Shown here: in pieces, positions 15,291-24,847 of the stretch | Numbering within the stretch: position 1 is the first letter of the stretch | How the letters are laid out: the number at the start of each line of letters is the position of its first letter | DNA from: Ignavibacteria bacterium | GTDB lineage: Bacteria > Bacteroidota > Ignavibacteria > Tepidaquicellales > Tepidaquicellaceae | Reading direction: 5' to 3' | NCBI GenBank assembly: GCA_019187405.1 | Contig: JABAQZ010000019.1 | Location: 62,001-126,000, forward strand | Length of the DNA stretch: 64,000 bases | Program-made: the position numbers and the translations under genes | Notes under the pieces: model-generated | What the model was told of the DNA's origin: nothing | The model's database searches: none | What the model saw: the letters and a program-made list of their open reading frames with translations, nothing else

Positions 15291-17456
15291 TTAAAAATTT
15301 TTGGGCTGAAACTCTTCGTTCCCGCACTGCCACATTATAAATGAACATATATCCGACAGGTTTTGAAAATAGTCGGTCATTGTTTCTCCGCCGAAGTGAC
15401 CTGTCGAGTAATCAACATGAAGCAGTATCGGATTGGATGAACTGTTGCAGCTCTGCATCTTAGCGGCAAACTTTGCAGGAATCCAGGAAATAACTCTCGG
15501 ATCATTAAATCCCGTAGTTATTAAAGTTGCAGGATATTTTTCACCGGACTTTAAATGAAAATATGAATCCATTTCCTTAAGAGCTTTATATTCTTCTTCT
15601 ATTGCAACTGTTCCAAACTCCGGAATATTTACCGGACCGTTCGGGCTGAATTCTCCTCTTAATGTATTCATGCATCCGACTTTTGGTATCGCAACTTTAA
15701 ACAGATCAGGTCTTTCGGTAATGGCTCTGCCTATTAATATTCCGCCTGCGCTTGTTCCGGTACCGGCTAATTTTTCTTTGGATGTATAACCTTTATCCAC
15801 AAGATACTGTGCGCATGCTATGAAATCCTTCCATGTGTTTGGTTTAGTCGACTTCCATCCGGCTCTGTACCAGTTTTCTCCTTTTTCACTGCCCCCTCTC
15901 ACATGAGCATAAGCCATTATTACTCCTCTGTTCATAAGCGGCATCATGAATGTATTAAAATACGGATTGGTGGAATAACCGTATGCTCCGTAACCATCTA
16001 TGTAACATATGTTGCTTCCGTCTTTCTTCATCAGATTTTTGTTATAAACAATTGACAGCGGAACTTTCTCGCCGTCATGAGAAATTACTTCTACAGTTTC
16101 AGATACAAGATTCTCTATACCGTCAATTTCATAGGAAACATTAAACGGACCATCGCTAAACTCCCCTTTTTCCAAATTGACAGTAAATGTATTTGAAGGT
16201 TCGGTCCAGCTGCTGTTCCATAAATTGCATATATTTGAATATGGGCTTTCCGCAGAAGCATAGATTGAACCTTTAAGCGGAAGTTCAATCTTTTCCGCTT
16301 TCCCGCCTGTTAATTTCATTTTGCTCAATGTAAATTCAATACCGTTATAAGTATGTGATATGATCATGTAATCTCTTGTGGAATTAATTGATACTATAAC
16401 TTTTTCACTTTCGGGAATGACAACTTCGGGATTGTTTAAATCCGGTTTATCGAGTGATACTCTGATTACTTTATAGTTTGGGGCATCCTTGGAAGTTAGA
16501 AAATAAATATTATTCTTATCAGCAATAGCATAGGTTGTTTTATCATCTTTTGTCGTCAGCTGTTTCCATTTTATTTTATCATCCTTCAGAGTTGATTTAG
16601 GAGCGTAAAAATATTCCTGATTATTATCTACCGTTCCTTTTCCCGCAAAAATATAATCACTGTTGTTATAGTAAAACATATATGGATAATCTTCCGGATT
16701 AATATTTAATTCAGGATTATTATCTCTGCTTAAAACAATTTTATCCTTACTCTGGTCTGTTCCCAGCTTATGTATCTTCACTCTCGAATTTTGCGTGGAT
16801 TCCATTTTGTGAACGTCATCGCTCTGAAGCTGAAGATACATGAATTCGTCATTACTCTCCGGCAGCCAGTCCATTACATAGCTTACCTTAAAATTTTCGG
16901 GCAACAGTGATTTCTTCTTTACATCCAGAATTCTAAGAGTTTGCTTTTCCTTTCCGCTTTCCGAAAGACCAAGAAGTATTTTACCGGCATCATCGCTTAC
17001 TACCCATGACTGAATAGTATAATTTACATTGCTGTCATAATTTTCAGGATCAAAAATGAGAATATCAGCGCTTCCTTGATTTTCCCTCATGTATAAGCTG
17101 TAGATTTCTTCTCCTGCCAGTCTTTTTTCAAAAAAATATTTCCCTGCTCTTTCTGAAATCGTACCGTATCTGATTTTTCTGCTTTTGTCAAGTTCTTTCA
17201 TTTCATTAACGAGCTTATCCCTGTTGGGAATTTTCGATATCACATCTAAAGTATAATCCGATTGAACTTTAAACCAGTCTTTAACTTCACTGTTTTCGAT
17301 ATCTTCCAGCCACTGATACGGATCTTCAATTGTTTCTCCGAAATATATCTCAATGCTGTCAGCAGTCTTTGATTCCGGATAAATCCACTGTGAATTTCCA
17401 TCATTATAGAATAAAATTACTATAATGACTAATAATAACTTACTTAATCGTTTCAT
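15291..17456 (-). CDS. Prolyl oligopeptidase family (S9A) serine peptidase, exported
   Basis: The 721-residue protein has a signal peptide (residues 1-22, ending GNSQ). An N-terminal arm with YQWLEDIENSEVKDW leads to a seven-bladed propeller (about 85-440) and the alpha/beta hydrolase domain. The catalytic residues are Ser569 in GTGTSAGG, Asp652 in GFNDPRV and His687 in STGHFGGE; the family's AHVRGGSEKGENWY is at 517-530. It should cleave short proline-containing peptides outside the cytoplasm. The nucleophile elbow GTSAGG is closer to oligopeptidase B (GGSAGG) than to classical POP (GGSNGG). It is monocistronic. Confidence 0.93.
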   Translation of the reverse strand: MKRLSKLLLVIIVILFYNDGNSQWIYPESKTADSIEIYFGETIEDPYQWLEDIENSEVKDWFKVQSDYTLDVISKIPNRDKLVNEMKELDKSRKIRYGTISERAGKYFFEKRLAGEEIYSLYMRENQGSADILIFDPENYDSNVNYTIQSWVVSDDAGKILLGLSESGKEKQTLRILDVKKKSLLPENFKVSYVMDWLPESNDEFMYLQLQSDDVHKMESTQNSRVKIHKLGTDQSKDKIVLSRDNNPELNINPEDYPYMFYYNNSDYIFAGKGTVDNNQEYFYAPKSTLKDDKIKWKQLTTKDDKTTYAIADKNNIYFLTSKDAPNYKVIRVSLDKPDLNNPEVVIPESEKVIVSINSTRDYMIISHTYNGIEFTLSKMKLTGGKAEKIELPLKGSIYASAESPYSNICNLWNSSWTEPSNTFTVNLEKGEFSDGPFNVSYEIDGIENLVSETVEVISHDGEKVPLSIVYNKNLMKKDGSNICYIDGYGAYGYSTNPYFNTFMMPLMNRGVIMAYAHVRGGSEKGENWYRAGWKSTKPNTWKDFIACAQYLVDKGYTSKEKLAGTGTSAGGILIGRAITERPDLFKVAIPKVGCMNTLRGEFSPNGPVNIPEFGTVAIEEEYKALKEMDSYFHLKSGEKYPATLITTGFNDPRVISWIPAKFAAKMQSCNSSSNPILLHVDYSTGHFGGETMTDYFQNLSDICSFIMWQCGNEEFQPKNF

Positions 17457-17866: not shown

Positions 17867-18103
17867 TTAATATAGCATTGAGCACGAATTGTCATGTAAA
17901 GTAAACACCGTATTCGAAAGTTTCTGCATTCCAAGTTTCATGCCTGCTTCTGGTCTGAACAATCTGTAATTGCCGTTTGATTTGGTGTTCAGATCCTTAT
18001 TTTTAAAATTATTATCAGCAGTGGATTCGGTGGCAAGCATTAATTTTATAATCACAGCAGCCAGAAAGAACATTAACAACAAAAGCTTTAAGTAAAGTCT
18101 CAT
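17867..18103 (-). CDS. Small protein with N-terminal signal or membrane segment
   Basis: The product has 78 residues. MRLYLKLLLLMFFLAAVIIK is a strong hydrophobic N-terminus, then about 55 polar residues with SNGNYRLFRPEAGMKLG and a C-terminal Cys in NSCSMLY. The start is supported by AAGGAG about nine bases upstream, and a strong terminator follows. No family is recognised. It is probably periplasmic or anchored in the inner membrane. Confidence 0.75.
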   Translation of the reverse strand: MRLYLKLLLLMFFLAAVIIKLMLATESTADNNFKNKDLNTKSNGNYRLFRPEAGMKLGMQKLSNTVFTLHDNSCSMLY

Positions 18104-18358: not shown

Positions 18359-19018
18359 TTAAAGCAGCGATTTATTTTCAAATGCAAATTTTATGAGACT
18401 GTTAGGACCTTTCAGTTTTAATTTTGCATTAATGTTCGATCTGTGATTTTCGACTGTTTTATTGCTGATAAAAAGTTCATGAGCTATTTCTTTGGATGTT
18501 TTCCCTTCGGAGATCATTTTCAAAATAATCAACTCAGTCTTTGTAAGATCGTTAAGCGACGGATTTTGTTTTTCAAACTTCTTTATTTTTTCTCTGCGAC
18601 TGAGGAGAAAATTTGATATGGAAGGCGATATATAGTAATTATCTTCCGCTACTTTGTTAATGCAGTCAATGATATCATCCACTGCACAATCCTTGAGAAC
18701 GAATCCATTTACGCCCAGCTCCATGGATTCGTCAAAAATATCTTCCGAAGAAAATACCGTGAGAAAAACTACTTTAGTTTTTGATTTTTTTTCTTTAAGA
18801 TTTTTAAGCACCTGAAGACCTGTCATTTTTGGCATGTCAATATCGAGCAGTGCAATATCAGGATTTAACTCCTCAATTTTTTCCAGCGCCTTTTCTCCGT
18901 TTTCAGCAACTGCCAGTATCTCAATGCTTTCATCTTCTTCAATAGTTTGCTTTAATCCGCTTCTGAATATCGGATGATCATCAGCAATTATGATTCTGAT
19001 TTTATTTTGCTCAGCCAT
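18359..19018 (-). CDS. NarL/LuxR-type response regulator
   Basis: The protein has 219 residues from the ATG at 19018, which overlaps the upstream kinase stop by eight bases, as expected for coupled genes. A longer frame back to 19117 is not believable because it lies inside the kinase domain. The receiver domain (6-120) has the acidic pair Asp13/Asp14, phospho-acceptor Asp59 (LLDIDMP) and Lys109 in VLKD. The LuxR HTH (about 150-215) contains LTKTELIILKMISEGKTSKE and NKTVENHRSNI. It should bind DNA when phosphorylated by the adjacent kinase. It is the last gene of the metzincin cassette, so it may control that cassette. Confidence 0.93.
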   Translation of the reverse strand: MAEQNKIRIIIADDHPIFRSGLKQTIEEDESIEILAVAENGEKALEKIEELNPDIALLDIDMPKMTGLQVLKNLKEKKSKTKVVFLTVFSSEDIFDESMELGVNGFVLKDCAVDDIIDCINKVAEDNYYISPSISNFLLSRREKIKKFEKQNPSLNDLTKTELIILKMISEGKTSKEIAHELFISNKTVENHRSNINAKLKLKGPNSLIKFAFENKSLL

Positions 19019-22000
19019 AATTAATTTCCTTAATTGGAATTTTAATTTTATAAACAGTTCCTTTACCCGGTTCTGATTCGATTTTATATTCACCCATATA
19101 TTTGATCCTCTCTGCAATACCCTCGAGTCCTATGCCTTCTTTTGCTCCTGGAAGCAATTTGCTTGAGACATTAAATCCCGTACCATTATCGGATATCAGA
19201 CAATAAATGCTTTTAGCGATTAACTTAACTTTAAAATTGGCTTTTGTAGCTTTTGAATGCTTGATTATATTGCTGATGATTTCATGAATTACTCTGAAAA
19301 GATTAATTTCGTTTTCTTTGGAAAGAATGTTATCTATATCGTCAATATCAGCCGAAAAGGAAATGTTGGTTGACTTATCAGCCTGATTAATGTTTGATAT
19401 AATTGTTTTAGTCAGCCCGAGTCTTTCGAGCTGATGCGGATGAAGATTATATGCAATACTTCTCACTTCATTTATCGCAGAAGATGAAAGCTCGGATATT
19501 TCTTTAAGAGCCTCTTCCATTTTTTTGTTATCGTTTTTATGTTTGAGAGCGAGAGCCGCTTTTTGTTTTGAAATGAGAAATTCGTGCGCTATTGTTTCGT
19601 GCAGGTCATGTGCAATTCTTTTTCTTTCGGTTTCCTGCGATTCGATAAGTTTTCTTGAAAATTCTTCCTGCGCCTTTTTTTCTTTTTCGATTTTATTCAA
19701 TCTTTGTTTGTAACTTAATCCTGTAATTGCGGCAAGGCTCAGCGCACCAAGCGATTTAAACCACCATGTTTTCCAGTAAGGTGGAGAGATATTTATCTTT
19801 ACTGAAGTTCCTTCTTCATTCCATTTACCATCGTTATTTGATCCTTTTACTCTGAACACATAGTTGCCAGGGTTAAGATTGGTGTAAGTAACTCTTTTTC
19901 TTGTTTCGCTGTATGTCCAGTCTTTGTCGAAACCTTCCATCTTATAGGCGTATTGATTTTTTTGAGGGTTGTTGTAAATAAGAGAAGCGAATCTGAAAGA
20001 AAAGACGCTTTCTTTGTATGTTAACTTTATTTCCTCAGCGTATGTGATGTTTTTTTTGAGAAAAGGATTATCGGGAGCGCCTTCGACAGATTCGTTGAAT
20101 ATTTCGAAGTCGGTGATGACGGTATTGGGTAAAAACGAATTTTCTCCAATATCTTCCGGATTAAAATAAGTTACACCATTTACTCCGCCAAAAAACATGC
20201 TGCCTGATTTATCCTTAAAAAATGCGCCATCATTGAATTCATTACTTTGAATACCATCTGAGTAAACATAATTTTTAACTAACTGAGTATTGAAATTATA
20301 CTTTGTTAATCCACTATTAGAACTTATCCATAAATTATTCGATGAATCTTCCAATATCCCTTTAATGTATTCATTAGGAAGCCCGTTAGATGAATTAATT
20401 CTTTGAAATGAATTACTTTTCTCGATATACTTATTTAATCCGCCGTTTTTAGTTCCAATCCATATATTGCCGGAACTGTCTTCTGCAATGCATGTTATGC
20501 AATTGTCGCTTATACTTGTATCATCATTCGGAATATATGTGAAATTTAAAATCTCCTTTTTCTTGAAATCACATTTATATAATCCCTCTCTGATGGTGCC
20601 TAACCATAATGATTTTTTTGAATCAATAAATGAACAGTAAATTATTTTTGTTTTCAATTTTTCATAAAATGGATCGTCATTGTCATATTTTACAAATTTT
20701 TCATTTACTGTGTCAAATTTCAGAATTCCCTTTTCCCGAATAGCTATATACAAATATGAATTAATGTAAAATATAGAATTTATCCCAAATTTAAATGGGT
20801 GCTGGAATTCGGATAATTCGTTTGTTAATAGATTATACTTATAAAAATAATCTTTCCTTAAACAGCAAAGCCAAACATTATTCTTATCATCTTCAATAAT
20901 GGAAGTAATAGCTTCGTGTGAATGATTCTTTAAATCAATATTTTCTGATAACGTTAGAAAACTATTGTCTCTTTTAAAGATCTTGATTCCATTACTGAAC
21001 GTACTTATCCAATGATTATTTTTACTGTCAACCAGTATTTTGACAACGCTTCCAATTTCTTCATTTTTTTCATTTGCATATTTTAAGTTATAAAAACGTT
21101 TCCTGCCGCAGTCCAGTTTATTAATTCCTCCTCCCAATGTTCCGATCCAAAGTACATTCGATCTATCCAAATACAAAGAATAAATGCTGTTTGTGCTAAT
21201 ACTGTTATAATCATTTTTTTCATGACAATATTGTGTCAATTTATTCTTGTCATCAATTTTCAATAATCCGTCAGTGTAAGTAGCTATCCATTTGTTCTTT
21301 GAATTATCTTCCAATATGGAAAATATCAGAATATCTTTGTTTGAAATGATATCCATTTTAGGACAAGAAATTAAATCATTTTTTTTTCGGTTAAAAATAT
21401 TCAGACCTTTGATTGTACCAATCCAAATGTTAGAATCCGAATCCTCAAAAATACAACGGACAGCATTGCTTCTTAAGTTTACCTTTGTATCAAAATGATC
21501 TTCTAATTTCTTTATTGTACTCTCCATTTTATTATAAATAAAAATTCCTTTATCCCAAGAACAAATCCAAATCAATCCAAATGAATCCTCATACAAAGCC
21601 GAAACATCAGTTAGATTTGAAATATCAAAATCATTATTTCCCGGTTTAAATGCTCTGATATTAGATATTCTGTTATCTAATACTTTTATTCCTCCATAAT
21701 ATGATCCAACAAGCATACTCTTATCTTCCATACATAAAAATGAAGTAAGTTCACTTTTTACTTCATCTGATTCATTGTCAATGCTAATGTTTGAAAAATT
21801 ATCCATAAACTTATTATATCGAAATATAAATCCATTTAAAGTTCCTGCCCATAATTGACCCGATTTATCAATTATTAATTTCTTGACAAAATTATCCGCA
21901 ATAGAATTTTGGTCTGAAATTCTGTTTTTATAAATTTTAAACTTAACGCCGTCATACTTGTTTAATCCTTCTTCCGTACCAAACCACATATAATCATCAC

Positions 22001-22067
22001 TGTCCTGAACAATTGAATATATCGAATTTTGAGAAAGACCTTGCTCTAATGATAATCGTTCAAACAT
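19011..22067 (-). CDS. Propeller-sensor histidine kinase (HisKA_3) without signal peptide
   Basis: The 1018-residue protein has about a dozen two-component regulator propeller blades (residues 5-600; motifs such as WFGTEEGLNKYDG and DSSGNIWIGTKNGG), a Y_Y_Y domain (about 690-755), a weakly hydrophobic stretch (767-786), then a HisKA_3 domain with His820 in RIAHDLHE and an HATPase_c domain (DNGTGFN, GIGLEGI). Relatives usually have a signal peptide that puts the propeller in the periplasm. Here the ATG opens directly on the first blade, a stop lies in frame just upstream, and the putative TM segment is poor, so the protein may be cytosolic. It pairs with the NarL-type regulator downstream. Confidence 0.9.
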   Translation of the reverse strand: MFERLSLEQGLSQNSIYSIVQDSDDYMWFGTEEGLNKYDGVKFKIYKNRISDQNSIADNFVKKLIIDKSGQLWAGTLNGFIFRYNKFMDNFSNISIDNESDEVKSELTSFLCMEDKSMLVGSYYGGIKVLDNRISNIRAFKPGNNDFDISNLTDVSALYEDSFGLIWICSWDKGIFIYNKMESTIKKLEDHFDTKVNLRSNAVRCIFEDSDSNIWIGTIKGLNIFNRKKNDLISCPKMDIISNKDILIFSILEDNSKNKWIATYTDGLLKIDDKNKLTQYCHEKNDYNSISTNSIYSLYLDRSNVLWIGTLGGGINKLDCGRKRFYNLKYANEKNEEIGSVVKILVDSKNNHWISTFSNGIKIFKRDNSFLTLSENIDLKNHSHEAITSIIEDDKNNVWLCCLRKDYFYKYNLLTNELSEFQHPFKFGINSIFYINSYLYIAIREKGILKFDTVNEKFVKYDNDDPFYEKLKTKIIYCSFIDSKKSLWLGTIREGLYKCDFKKKEILNFTYIPNDDTSISDNCITCIAEDSSGNIWIGTKNGGLNKYIEKSNSFQRINSSNGLPNEYIKGILEDSSNNLWISSNSGLTKYNFNTQLVKNYVYSDGIQSNEFNDGAFFKDKSGSMFFGGVNGVTYFNPEDIGENSFLPNTVITDFEIFNESVEGAPDNPFLKKNITYAEEIKLTYKESVFSFRFASLIYNNPQKNQYAYKMEGFDKDWTYSETRKRVTYTNLNPGNYVFRVKGSNNDGKWNEEGTSVKINISPPYWKTWWFKSLGALSLAAITGLSYKQRLNKIEKEKKAQEEFSRKLIESQETERKRIAHDLHETIAHEFLISKQKAALALKHKNDNKKMEEALKEISELSSSAINEVRSIAYNLHPHQLERLGLTKTIISNINQADKSTNISFSADIDDIDNILSKENEINLFRVIHEIISNIIKHSKATKANFKVKLIAKSIYCLISDNGTGFNVSSKLLPGAKEGIGLEGIAERIKYMGEYKIESEPGKGTVYKIKIPIKEINYG

Positions 22068-22093
22068 TAAAATTTTTTTATTTCAAATATGCT

Positions 22094-22501
22094 TTAACTT
22101 CCGGAGTTTTTCAATTCCATGTTTATAATCTCATACATCGATACTATTAACTCTTTTAACCTGTTAAGTTCATTGATTTTTGCTGTTACCTTTACGTCAA
22201 GGTTTGTCAGTTTGATAACTTCTTTAAGATACTTGCCTGCAGTATCTCCGTTTAATTTGTTTTCTGCCTCAGACAGAATATCCGAAAATATTTCTTTTGC
22301 AATAGCATCTGATCCGGTATCTCTTGAAAGATAACCCTGATTGGGTCCGGTGCCGCATGGAACACACTTATATCCGGGAGGTACATCAAATCTGGTGTCG
22401 CAAAATGGTCCGGGACATGGACCGCTGTTGGCAGAAATTGCAACTAAAACATTTTGCTCAATTGAATTGAATTCAGAAAATAGATCTTCAACTGTTGCCA
22501 T
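22094..22501 (-). CDS. Cys-rich small protein of metzincin cassette
   Basis: This 135-residue product has an N-terminal helix (VEDLFSEFNSIEQNVLVAIS). A short Gly/Pro/Cys segment follows, with Cys29, Cys34, Cys46 and Cys49 (GPCPGPFC, YKCVPCG) spaced like a small zinc knuckle. Residues 64-133 are a long helical region. No export signal is seen. AAAGGA precedes the ATG. It lies 102 bases after the HEAT gene and 26 before the kinase gene. No family name is known to me. It could be a substrate, adaptor or inhibitor of the metzincin. Confidence 0.75.
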   Translation of the reverse strand: MATVEDLFSEFNSIEQNVLVAISANSGPCPGPFCDTRFDVPPGYKCVPCGTGPNQGYLSRDTGSDAIAKEIFSDILSEAENKLNGDTAGKYLKEVIKLTNLDVKVTAKINELNRLKELIVSMYEIINMELKNSGS

Positions 22502-22603
22502 TTTTTAATCCTTTCTTTTTAGATTAATAAATTATTTTTTAAAATACTTGTATTTCGTATTTTTTATATCTTTATTTTTTTATAAAAGCTTAGAAAACTA
22601 TTA

Positions 22604-23092
22604 TTAAAAATACTTATTAAACTTGCGAGATAGATTCTTTAGCTTCCGCTTTATTTTCTGATTAAGCGATTTATCATTTTCCATATTAAAATTTGCGCTA
22701 TATCCTTCTTTTGAATTTATTGAATTACGCGTATATTTTTTTACGCCAGCATCCTCATCTGAATTCAGTTTATTCAAAAGTTCTGTAATTTTATTTGGGA
22801 TAAGATCATTCCCTGAAGTTTGCATGCTTAATTTATTCCTTAATGCCTGTGCGGCAGATATTTTTAATATCGGATCATTACTATTTACGGCAAATTCAAT
22901 TCCTTCATAAGTAGAATCAAAATCCATAAGACTTAAAATTACTAAAGCCTTGGCAGAAACTGATTTATCAGGCTCGCGTACAAGCTCTGTAATTAACGGG
23001 ATATCCGCTTCACTGAATGTATTTGCAATTTCTTTATAATTTGGATTATCCCGATTTATAATTTTTTTTACTTCTTCTTTATTATAAGTCAT
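22604..23092 (-). CDS. HEAT-repeat protein of metzincin cassette
   Basis: The 162-residue protein is made of about four HEAT-like helix pairs (for example SVSAKALVILSLMDF, DPILKISAAQALRN, EDAGVKKYTRNSI). A basic tail, QKIKRKLKNLSRKFNKYF, ends it. There is no signal peptide. Its start lies five bases after the metzincin stop, so the two are translationally linked and probably interact. The fold suggests a protein-binding scaffold. Similar HEAT proteins next to metalloproteases in other phyla come to mind, but this could not be checked. Confidence 0.8.
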   Translation of the reverse strand: MTYNKEEVKKIINRDNPNYKEIANTFSEADIPLITELVREPDKSVSAKALVILSLMDFDSTYEGIEFAVNSNDPILKISAAQALRNKLSMQTSGNDLIPNKITELLNKLNSDEDAGVKKYTRNSINSKEGYSANFNMENDKSLNQKIKRKLKNLSRKFNKYF

Positions 23093-23097
23093 TGCAT

Positions 23098-23664
23098 TTA
23101 ATTAGCTTCATTGAAATAATTGCTGCCTAATATCGTTGTAATTTCATCTTCCGTCAGTAATGGAGGATGACGTGAGATATTTGCAGTCCCTTCTCCAGTC
23201 ATTAAAAAGGAATAGTCGCCGCGTGTCAATGTATGTTGCAATCCAAGAACATGTCCAATTTCATGTGCAAGAGTATATTTTGAAGAAATTGAAGAAATAT
23301 ACACCGCAGGATTATTTGGCGGATGTGAAGCACAGCCATTTACAGATCCTACTATTCTATCATGTAACGAAAACGATGAAACAGTCCTGCAAAAAAATAC
23401 TTTAATATCTTTACTTCCCAACTCAGTAACTTCTATTCCGGCTAACTGTATCTGCTCTGTCGAAGGATATCCCATCATGCAGCTTTCTGTATCGAGATCA
23501 TTGAGCGATTCATATTCATCTTCATTCAGCAGCACTTGCTCGTAAGAAAGTACATATACATGTATATTAGCAGCTTCATAAATCTGATTCATTGCATTTA
23601 TCATATCTAATACAGGAATATCCGGTTCTGTTAATATTCTAATGTGTAAATTTAATACTGGCAT
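23098..23664 (-). CDS. Metzincin (matrixin-like) metalloprotease, no signal peptide
   Basis: This 188-residue protein carries the full zinc motif HEIGHVLGLQH (His134, Glu135, His138, His144) and a Met-turn at Met155 (FLMTG), the hallmarks of metzincins. The start, MPVLNLHIRIL, is the first strand of the fold, and no export signal precedes it, which is odd for a matrixin-like enzyme. A conserved-looking loop with Cys111 and His114 (NGCASHPP) lies just before the active helix. It is the first gene of the five-gene cassette ending at 18359. The substrate is unknown. An intracellular or non-classically exported protease is inferred. Confidence 0.9.
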   Translation of the reverse strand: MPVLNLHIRILTEPDIPVLDMINAMNQIYEAANIHVYVLSYEQVLLNEDEYESLNDLDTESCMMGYPSTEQIQLAGIEVTELGSKDIKVFFCRTVSSFSLHDRIVGSVNGCASHPPNNPAVYISSISSKYTLAHEIGHVLGLQHTLTRGDYSFLMTGEGTANISRHPPLLTEDEITTILGSNYFNEAN

Positions 23665-23837
23665 TTTTTTAGAAAGAATTTAAGTATTCAATAGATAGTG
23701 AAATAATAATGACAATATTTTAGTTTTGATAAAAGCATTTTTTTAAATGTACTTTATATCATCTTTACTTCAATTCAACTTCCGCCGCCGGCAAAAAGCT
23801 TATTAAATATTCTCGTATCGAGAGATATACCAAAAAA

Positions 23838-24060
23838 TCATTTCCATTCATATTTATCCTTTGTAACTATTTGATCTTGCTGTCCATTAAATTGAGTTTT
23901 ACCTAACTCAAATTTTTTCATCAGCCAGTTGTAAGGTCTTCCGGTAATGTCCGCCACCAATTAGGCTTCCTCCCCTTGCAAATACCATTGTTAATCCGAT
24001 AAAGAAATTTTCTGCAATATTGTAAAAACTGAAATTAGATTTATCACATATCGATAAAAT
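23838..24060 (-). pseudogene. Frameshifted gene remnant
   Basis: On the minus strand one frame is open from 24060 to a TGA at 23908 and reads DKSNFSFYNIAENFFIGLTM followed by VFARGGSLIGG. A second frame, open from 23960 to 23838, reads VADITGRPYNWLMKKFELGK and ends KDKYEWK. Both look protein-like and fit together if a frame change occurred near 23930-23960. No start codon or partner is present. The parent gene is not recognised. Confidence 0.4.
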
Positions 24061-24847
24061 TTATTCCGATTAGCTATTAAACTTTAACATACATGCAATA
24101 TTTATATTAGGCAAAATTAAAACAGTAAATAACTCCACACTTTCTCCATAGGTATCTCCCCTCATTTTTCGCTTCTGTGATTTTAATCATATTTTTGTTT
24201 TTAGCTTTTTAATATTTTGGTTTAAATTAAAAGCAGACGGGGCTTAATACTCCAAAAGTATTATTATTTTAAATATTCGCTTGCCGGCTTTATTTAAAAT
24301 TCCTGCTCTGCTTTTTTGTATCTTAAATCATATTTACCACTCCAGTATTTACTTCATTTATCAATTTTTAATTCAACCTAAAATGTAAATTAACACAAAG
24401 ATGTTAATTGCAAATCTTCATTTTTAAATGAAATAATATTATCCTAATAAATGAAAAGGATAAATCTTTATTTCCTGAAAATTCATTTCCGGTACTGTAA
24501 AGGACAATTGGTTTTTGAAGCTTATCTACTCGCTGGTATGTACTGATTCGTTTGGAGTTTTCATATTCAATCAGTTTTCTTTCTCTATTTTGCTGATGTC
24601 AAATTATAAAAATTGATTTTAAATTGCAAACACTAATTTATTTTTCACCGCTGAACTTTTCAGAAGCTTTAGAAATTTATTCTGTACTAAAATAAATTTG
24701 AAGATAAATGATTCTATTTATATCTTGTTTTTATCTTCATGCTAAACCTTCTCGGTTTTATTTCAGCTGTTTGTTTCTCCTGCTTTTTTGACTGTTAAAT
24801 TTTAACTGATAATTTTAATTTTACTTTTAAAAAAGTAAAATACTATT
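24061..24847. other. AT-rich intergenic stretch, nothing recognised
   Basis: No open frame of protein-like composition, RNA gene or strong hairpin was found on either strand. The region, with the remnant before it, separates the metzincin cassette from the DUF302 gene. Confidence 0.5.

What the first reader, a model, noticed from the sequence alone, without database searches (positions are those of the whole stretch)
18359..23664. Five-gene metzincin-HEAT-Cys protein-propeller kinase-regulator cassette, apparently all cytosolic
Seen: metzincin with intact HExxHxxGxxH and Met-turn, HEAT protein five bases downstream, a 135-residue protein with four Cys, then a propeller histidine kinase and NarL-type regulator with an 8-base overlap, all on one strand. 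None has a signal peptide, which is unusual for a matrixin-like protease and for this kinase class. Inference: a protease whose activity or product is sensed by, or controlled through, the two-component pair, with the Cys-rich protein as possible substrate or inhibitor. No named system with this set is known to me.
Basis: partly seen in the sequence, partly recalled or inferred. Interest (0 to 1): 0.78.

Follow-up and report, generated by a model that had tools for sequence, protein, structure and literature searches.

The report
Metzincin-HEAT pair beside cytosolic kinase
A small protein-cutting enzyme travels with a dedicated partner protein across distant bacteria, and in this genome the pair sits next to an internal sensor-regulator pair whose closest relative in another genus sits next to different protein-cutting enzymes; the five genes are not a conserved unit, but the two modules are real.

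Summary
All five genes are real and placed as described, but the interpretation must be split. (1) Metzincin and HEAT form a true two-gene module. It recurs in all four full-length finds: this genome, a Spirosoma plasmid, a Streptomyces plasmid and an unrelated Bacteroidota genome. HEAT always follows directly, no signal peptide is evident, and N-terminal modules differ (none, zinc-ribbon repeats, LGFP repeats). No propeller kinase or Cys protein lies beside the others. (2) The Cys protein has no detectable relative. (3) The kinase is not odd in lacking a signal peptide: 11 of 19 sampled propeller kinases lack one and group together. In its five-member clade every kinase follows a small, mostly unrelated gene. 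(4) The sister kinase/regulator in another genus (regulator 84% identical) lies beside two signal-less subtilases and, further up, a patatin. Best reading: a mobile protease/partner pair (HEAT as inhibitor, immunity protein or chaperone) beside a two-component operon that may regulate neighbouring hydrolases. No sensing link or shared transcript is shown.

The parts
23098..23664 (-). Signal-less metzincin, 188 aa, HEIGHVLGLQH + LMTG, two invariant Cys (aa 62, 111)
   Evidence: Pfam Reprolysin_3/_5 over cut-off; 37-45% identical relatives in three other records
22604..23092 (-). HEAT-repeat partner protein, 162 aa, 5 bases after the metzincin
   Evidence: tblastn E 2e-14 and 7e-11 to HEAT proteins adjacent to the related metzincins; alignment A5
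22094..22501 (-). Orphan 135-aa protein, CxxxxC-x11-CxxC then predicted helical hairpin
   Evidence: no relatives; coding by codon score; low-confidence model
19011..22067 (-). Signal-less two-component propeller histidine kinase (Reg_prop, Y_Y_Y, HisKA_3, HATPase_c), 1018 aa
   Evidence: Pfam; tree
18359..19018 (-). NarL-type response regulator, 219 aa, overlaps the kinase by 8 bases
   Evidence: Pfam Response_reg + GerE; 84% identical to the G011 regulator
22543..22554 (.). Inverted repeat AATACTTGTATT between HEAT and Cys genes; possible but unproven regulator site
   Evidence: the only match in the window, present in 9 of 100 shuffles

Best explanation
Two modules lie side by side. Module A is a laterally spread metzincin protease with a tightly linked HEAT-repeat partner, which most likely binds the protease and keeps it inactive or folds it in the producing cell (inhibitor, immunity protein or chaperone). 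In relatives the protease core carries exchangeable binding repeats; here it stands alone. Module B is an operon of a small variable protein, a signal-less propeller histidine kinase and a NarL-type regulator; it most likely senses an intracellular or membrane-proximal cue and controls transcription of adjacent hydrolase genes. Shown: the genes, the recurring pair, the kinase clade with its small upstream genes, and the sister pair beside other proteases. Inferred: HEAT as inhibitor or chaperone, regulation of A by B, a cytosolic propeller.
For: Pair conserved in 4 of 4 full-length finds across two phyla, HEAT gene at -4 to +53 bases; exchangeable N-termini; HEAT diverges faster (25-31%) than the protease (37-45%), as inhibitors and immunity proteins often do; patchy distribution. 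Kinase clade 100/99 with a small same-strand gene just upstream of every member. Sister locus with an 84% identical regulator beside two signal-less subtilases and a patatin, in a genome with only 14 S8 domains.
Against: No shared promoter motif between window and sister locus. The link rests on one sister locus found after the fact, and the two subtilases may be one tandem event. In the sister locus a hairpin and a 275-base gap separate the kinase from the small gene, so co-transcription with the proteases is doubtful there. No direct evidence that HEAT binds the metzincin.
Confidence: 0.45

Rival explanations
1. Chance neighbourhood: a mobile metzincin-HEAT pair landed upstream of an unrelated small-protein/kinase/regulator operon, with no functional link between the two modules.
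For: The pair lives elsewhere without a propeller kinase; most kinase relatives live without any protease; the 102-base gap before the Cys gene leaves room for a separate promoter.
Against: The sister kinase/regulator also lies beside signal-less proteases, of a different class; all five genes are co-directional with tight spacing.
Confidence: 0.35
2. One reading: the metzincin cleaves the Cys protein, and the kinase senses the product or the protease itself.
For: The Cys protein lies between protease and kinase; known metzincin pairs include one where the partner is cleaved (Listeria Mtz/Tim, PMC8235301).
Against: The Cys protein is absent from all other metzincin-HEAT loci; the small genes before related kinases are mostly unrelated, and three of five are predicted secreted, which does not fit one shared substrate for a cytosolic propeller.
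Confidence: 0.12
3. A metallopeptidase peptide-processing system of the FxSxx-COOH kind, in which a zincin cuts a small, fast-diverging precursor.
For: Zincin plus a small variable protein in one neighbourhood, as described in PMC7159879.
Against: C-terminus MELKNSGS lacks the FxSxx motif; no NCBIfam hit for the small protein; the pair occurs elsewhere with no such precursor beside it.
Confidence: 0.05

Closest known systems
Metzincin peptidases (Pfam Reprolysin_3, Reprolysin_5, Peptidase_M10)
   Same: HExxHxxGxxH zinc site and Met-turn; Pfam Reprolysin_3/_5 over cut-off
   Different: No signal peptide or propeptide; followed by a HEAT partner; N-terminal modules vary between relatives
Listeria Mtz/Tim metzincin and TIMP-like pair (PMC8235301)
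   Same: Two adjacent genes, a metzincin and a protein partner
   Different: Mtz is secreted and Tim is a lipoprotein with a TIMP-like fold that Mtz cleaves; here both lack signal peptides and the partner is HEAT-like
Polymorphic toxin/immunity loci with peptidase toxins (PMC3482391)
   Same: Variable N-terminal repeats, C-terminal peptidase, small fast-diverging gene directly downstream
   Different: No known trafficking domain in the window protein; immunity function not shown
Two-component propeller kinases (Reg_prop/Y_Y_Y/HisKA_3) with NarL-type regulators
   Same: All domains, order and regulator type
   Different: Belongs to a signal-less group, so the propeller is probably not periplasmic
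Zincin/FxSxx-COOH peptide-processing systems (PMC7159879)
   Same: Zincin beside a small rapidly diverging protein
   Different: No FxSxx-type C-terminus, HEAT partner present, no ternary NTPase system seen beside it

Membership tests
Metzincin peptidase | HExxHxxGxxH/D zinc-binding motif | tested here: met
   HEIGHVLGLQH, conserved in 4 of 4 relatives
Metzincin peptidase | Methionine turn downstream of the motif | tested here: met
   LMTG invariant in 4 of 4
Metzincin peptidase | Metzincin fold | tested here: inconclusive
   single-sequence model pLDDT 34
HEAT-repeat protein | HEAT profile match over cut-off | tested here: inconclusive
   window protein 14.1 bits against 27.7; adjacent homologues 46.6, 31.8, 32.8 bits
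Two-component propeller histidine kinase | Reg_prop repeats, Y_Y_Y, HisKA_3, HATPase_c | tested here: met
   all over cut-off
Two-component propeller histidine kinase | Signal peptide and periplasmic propeller (classical members) | tested here: not met
   no signal peptide; shared by a whole group of relatives
Polymorphic toxin/immunity locus | N-terminal trafficking or secretion domain on the toxin | tested here: not met
   window metzincin has only the catalytic domain
Polymorphic toxin/immunity locus | Immunity gene directly downstream that neutralises the toxin | not testable with these tools
   HEAT gene is in the right place in 4 of 4; activity needs an experiment
FxSxx-COOH peptide-processing system | Small protein with a conserved C-terminal motif | tested here: not met
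   C-terminus MELKNSGS; no NCBIfam hit
Metzincin/TIMP-like pair (Listeria type) | Secreted metzincin and lipoprotein partner | tested here: not met
   neither window protein has a signal peptide or lipobox (sequences)

The most novel reading that the evidence does not exclude
A clade of cytosolic propeller kinases acts as an internal sensor that switches on interchangeable signal-less hydrolase effectors (a metzincin-HEAT pair here, subtilases and a patatin in the sister genus), a two-component-controlled counterpart of bacterial protease conflict systems.
Probability: 0.15. Interest if true: 0.8.

Novelty: new variant of a known kind. Interest (0 to 1): 0.45.

Why it matters
A signal-less metzincin with a fixed HEAT partner, found in Bacteroidota and Streptomyces, looks like an undescribed protease-partner pair whose inhibition or chaperoning can be tested directly. 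If the sensor pair controls it, this would be a transcriptional route by which a cell arms cytosolic proteases. The signal-less kinase group also raises a testable question: what a propeller sensor reads when it is not in the periplasm.

Tried and rejected
Pfam, NCBIfam, PHROGs, PADLOC and PDB sequence searches gave nothing convincing for the Cys protein. Genome-contig and viral scans gave no true relatives of metzincin or Cys protein; two viral hits were unrelated lipoprotein metzincins sharing only the zinc motif. Phage records: no match. A shared-motif search between the window and the G011 locus was no better than shuffles. No Rfam hit. Single-sequence structure models of the Cys protein (pLDDT 55) and metzincin (pLDDT 34) were too weak for fold searches. 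Homology between the window Cys protein and the Cys-rich secreted proteins before the C5a and G022 kinases was considered and rejected (BLAST E 0.8 or worse). A Rhodococcus plasmid M57 protease hit was not followed, because the list was dominated by LGFP repeats. Literature searches found no description of a metzincin-HEAT pair or of this kinase clade.

Full report
Observation. The five same-strand genes are there. The regulator begins at 19018, giving the 8-base overlap with the kinase. The metzincin has HEIGHVLGLQH and LMTG, and HEAT starts 5 bases after it. The Cys gene follows after 102 bases and the kinase after a further 26. Codon scoring puts the annotated frame above the other five for every gene, the orphan included.

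Metzincin and HEAT are one module. A plasmid search found relatives of both proteins, adjacent, on a Spirosoma and a Streptomyces plasmid. A profile search in another Bacteroidota class found a fourth pair (G826, L078). In all four the HEAT gene directly follows (from a 4-base overlap to a 53-base gap). No member shows a signal peptide. N-termini differ: none in the window, three CxxC zinc-ribbon-like repeats in Spirosoma, a degenerate one in Streptomyces, four LGFP repeats in G826. The catalytic core keeps its zinc site, the Met-turn and two invariant cysteines. HEAT is less conserved (25-31% to the window protein) than the protease (37-45%). The pair is rare: only the own genome had a full-length match among 148 relatives and among 396 phylum genomes, one of 395 in another class, one of 108 in that hit's order. 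None of the other three loci has a propeller kinase or the Cys protein beside it. Spirosoma has a GAF/HisKA histidine kinase about 0.6 kb upstream, which may be chance. The two invariant cysteines could form a disulphide, which would hint at action outside the cytosol; this is inference only.

The Cys protein has no relative in 148 relatives, the plasmids, the bacterial genome contigs or viral contigs. Its single-sequence model shows helix, Cys-bearing strands and a helical hairpin, at low confidence.

The kinase lacks a signal peptide, but so do 10 of the 18 other propeller kinases sampled (nearest relatives plus paralogues of the own genome, where 3 of 8 lack one); the signal-less ones group together on the tree (87/91). 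The trait is therefore old and shared. Their membrane-like segment is slightly less hydrophobic than in signal-bearing kinases (Mann-Whitney p 0.02, 18 sequences, not corrected for relatedness). That fits a segment that no longer spans the membrane but does not prove it. If it did span, a cytosolic propeller would put the kinase domain outside, so the all-cytosolic reading needs it not to span. The window kinase belongs to a five-member clade (100/99) with G011:C34 as sister (100/99). Each member has a small same-strand gene just upstream: Cys orphan (window), Gly-rich repeat protein (G011), related Cys-rich secreted proteins (own C5a and G022), another secreted protein (G009). This places the Cys protein more naturally with the kinase than with the metzincin.

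The sister locus. The G011 regulator is 84% identical to the window's, with near-identical DNA-binding helices; the kinase is 47-57% identical depending on the stretch. Upstream of that kinase lie, on the same strand, a Gly-rich protein, two subtilases with intact catalytic residues and no signal peptides, a membrane protein and, further up, a patatin phospholipase; a propeptide-like protein (Tk-SP N-propeptide, just below cut-off) lies on the other strand between the subtilases. G011 has 14 S8 domains in 3.4 Mb, so two within 7 kb of the kinase is unlikely by chance (about 0.03 expected), though it is a single post hoc locus and may be one tandem event. No close relative of the larger subtilase was found in the other relatives except one distant match, so the association cannot be tested further here.

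Conclusion. The five-gene cassette is not a conserved unit. It is a rare, laterally spread protease-partner pair beside a signal-less two-component operon. The sister comparison makes a regulatory link to neighbouring hydrolases plausible, not shown. Protease sensing by the kinase, and any role of the Cys protein as substrate or inhibitor, remain speculation. No published description of the pair was found in the searchable library. The nearest precedents are the Listeria Mtz/Tim pair (PMC8235301), peptidase polymorphic toxins (PMC3482391) and metallopeptidase peptide-processing systems (PMC7159879).

Noticed in passing
window 15291-17456 and 17867-18103 (-): Downstream of the regulator on the same strand lie a 78-aa predicted secreted peptide with a good ribosome site and a secreted prolyl oligopeptidase (S9A); the G011 sister locus has no such gene next to its regulator.
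   Followed up: partly
L052 1676-5332 and L073 12683-14707 (G011:C34): Signal-less patatin, two signal-less subtilases, an opposite-strand propeptide-like protein and a (GGSGDPSNS)n protein next to the sister kinase: a possible hydrolase island in its own right.
   Followed up: partly
L037 1044-1589 and L053 5520-6047: A family of small secreted proteins with six conserved Cys, each directly upstream of a signal-less propeller kinase; found in only 2 of 148 genomes.
   Followed up: partly
L015 7554-8000, L041 5001-5414, L042 4875-5495: Tandem WxFCxKCGxxFFxG...CPAGGxH repeats (zinc-ribbon-like) in a Spirosoma metzincin, a Paraburkholderia propeller protein and a Streptomyces protein next to a G1 endopeptidase: a repeat with no full Pfam model, seemingly protease-associated.
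   Followed up: no
L037 1635-4718: The own-genome C5a kinase has GLHN instead of LHD/LHE after the phospho-acceptor His, a deviation in the H-box.
   Followed up: no
window 23665-24847: A 1.18 kb AT-rich stretch upstream of the metzincin with only tiny ORFs (for example a 26-aa Gly-rich one); possibly gene debris.
   Followed up: partly
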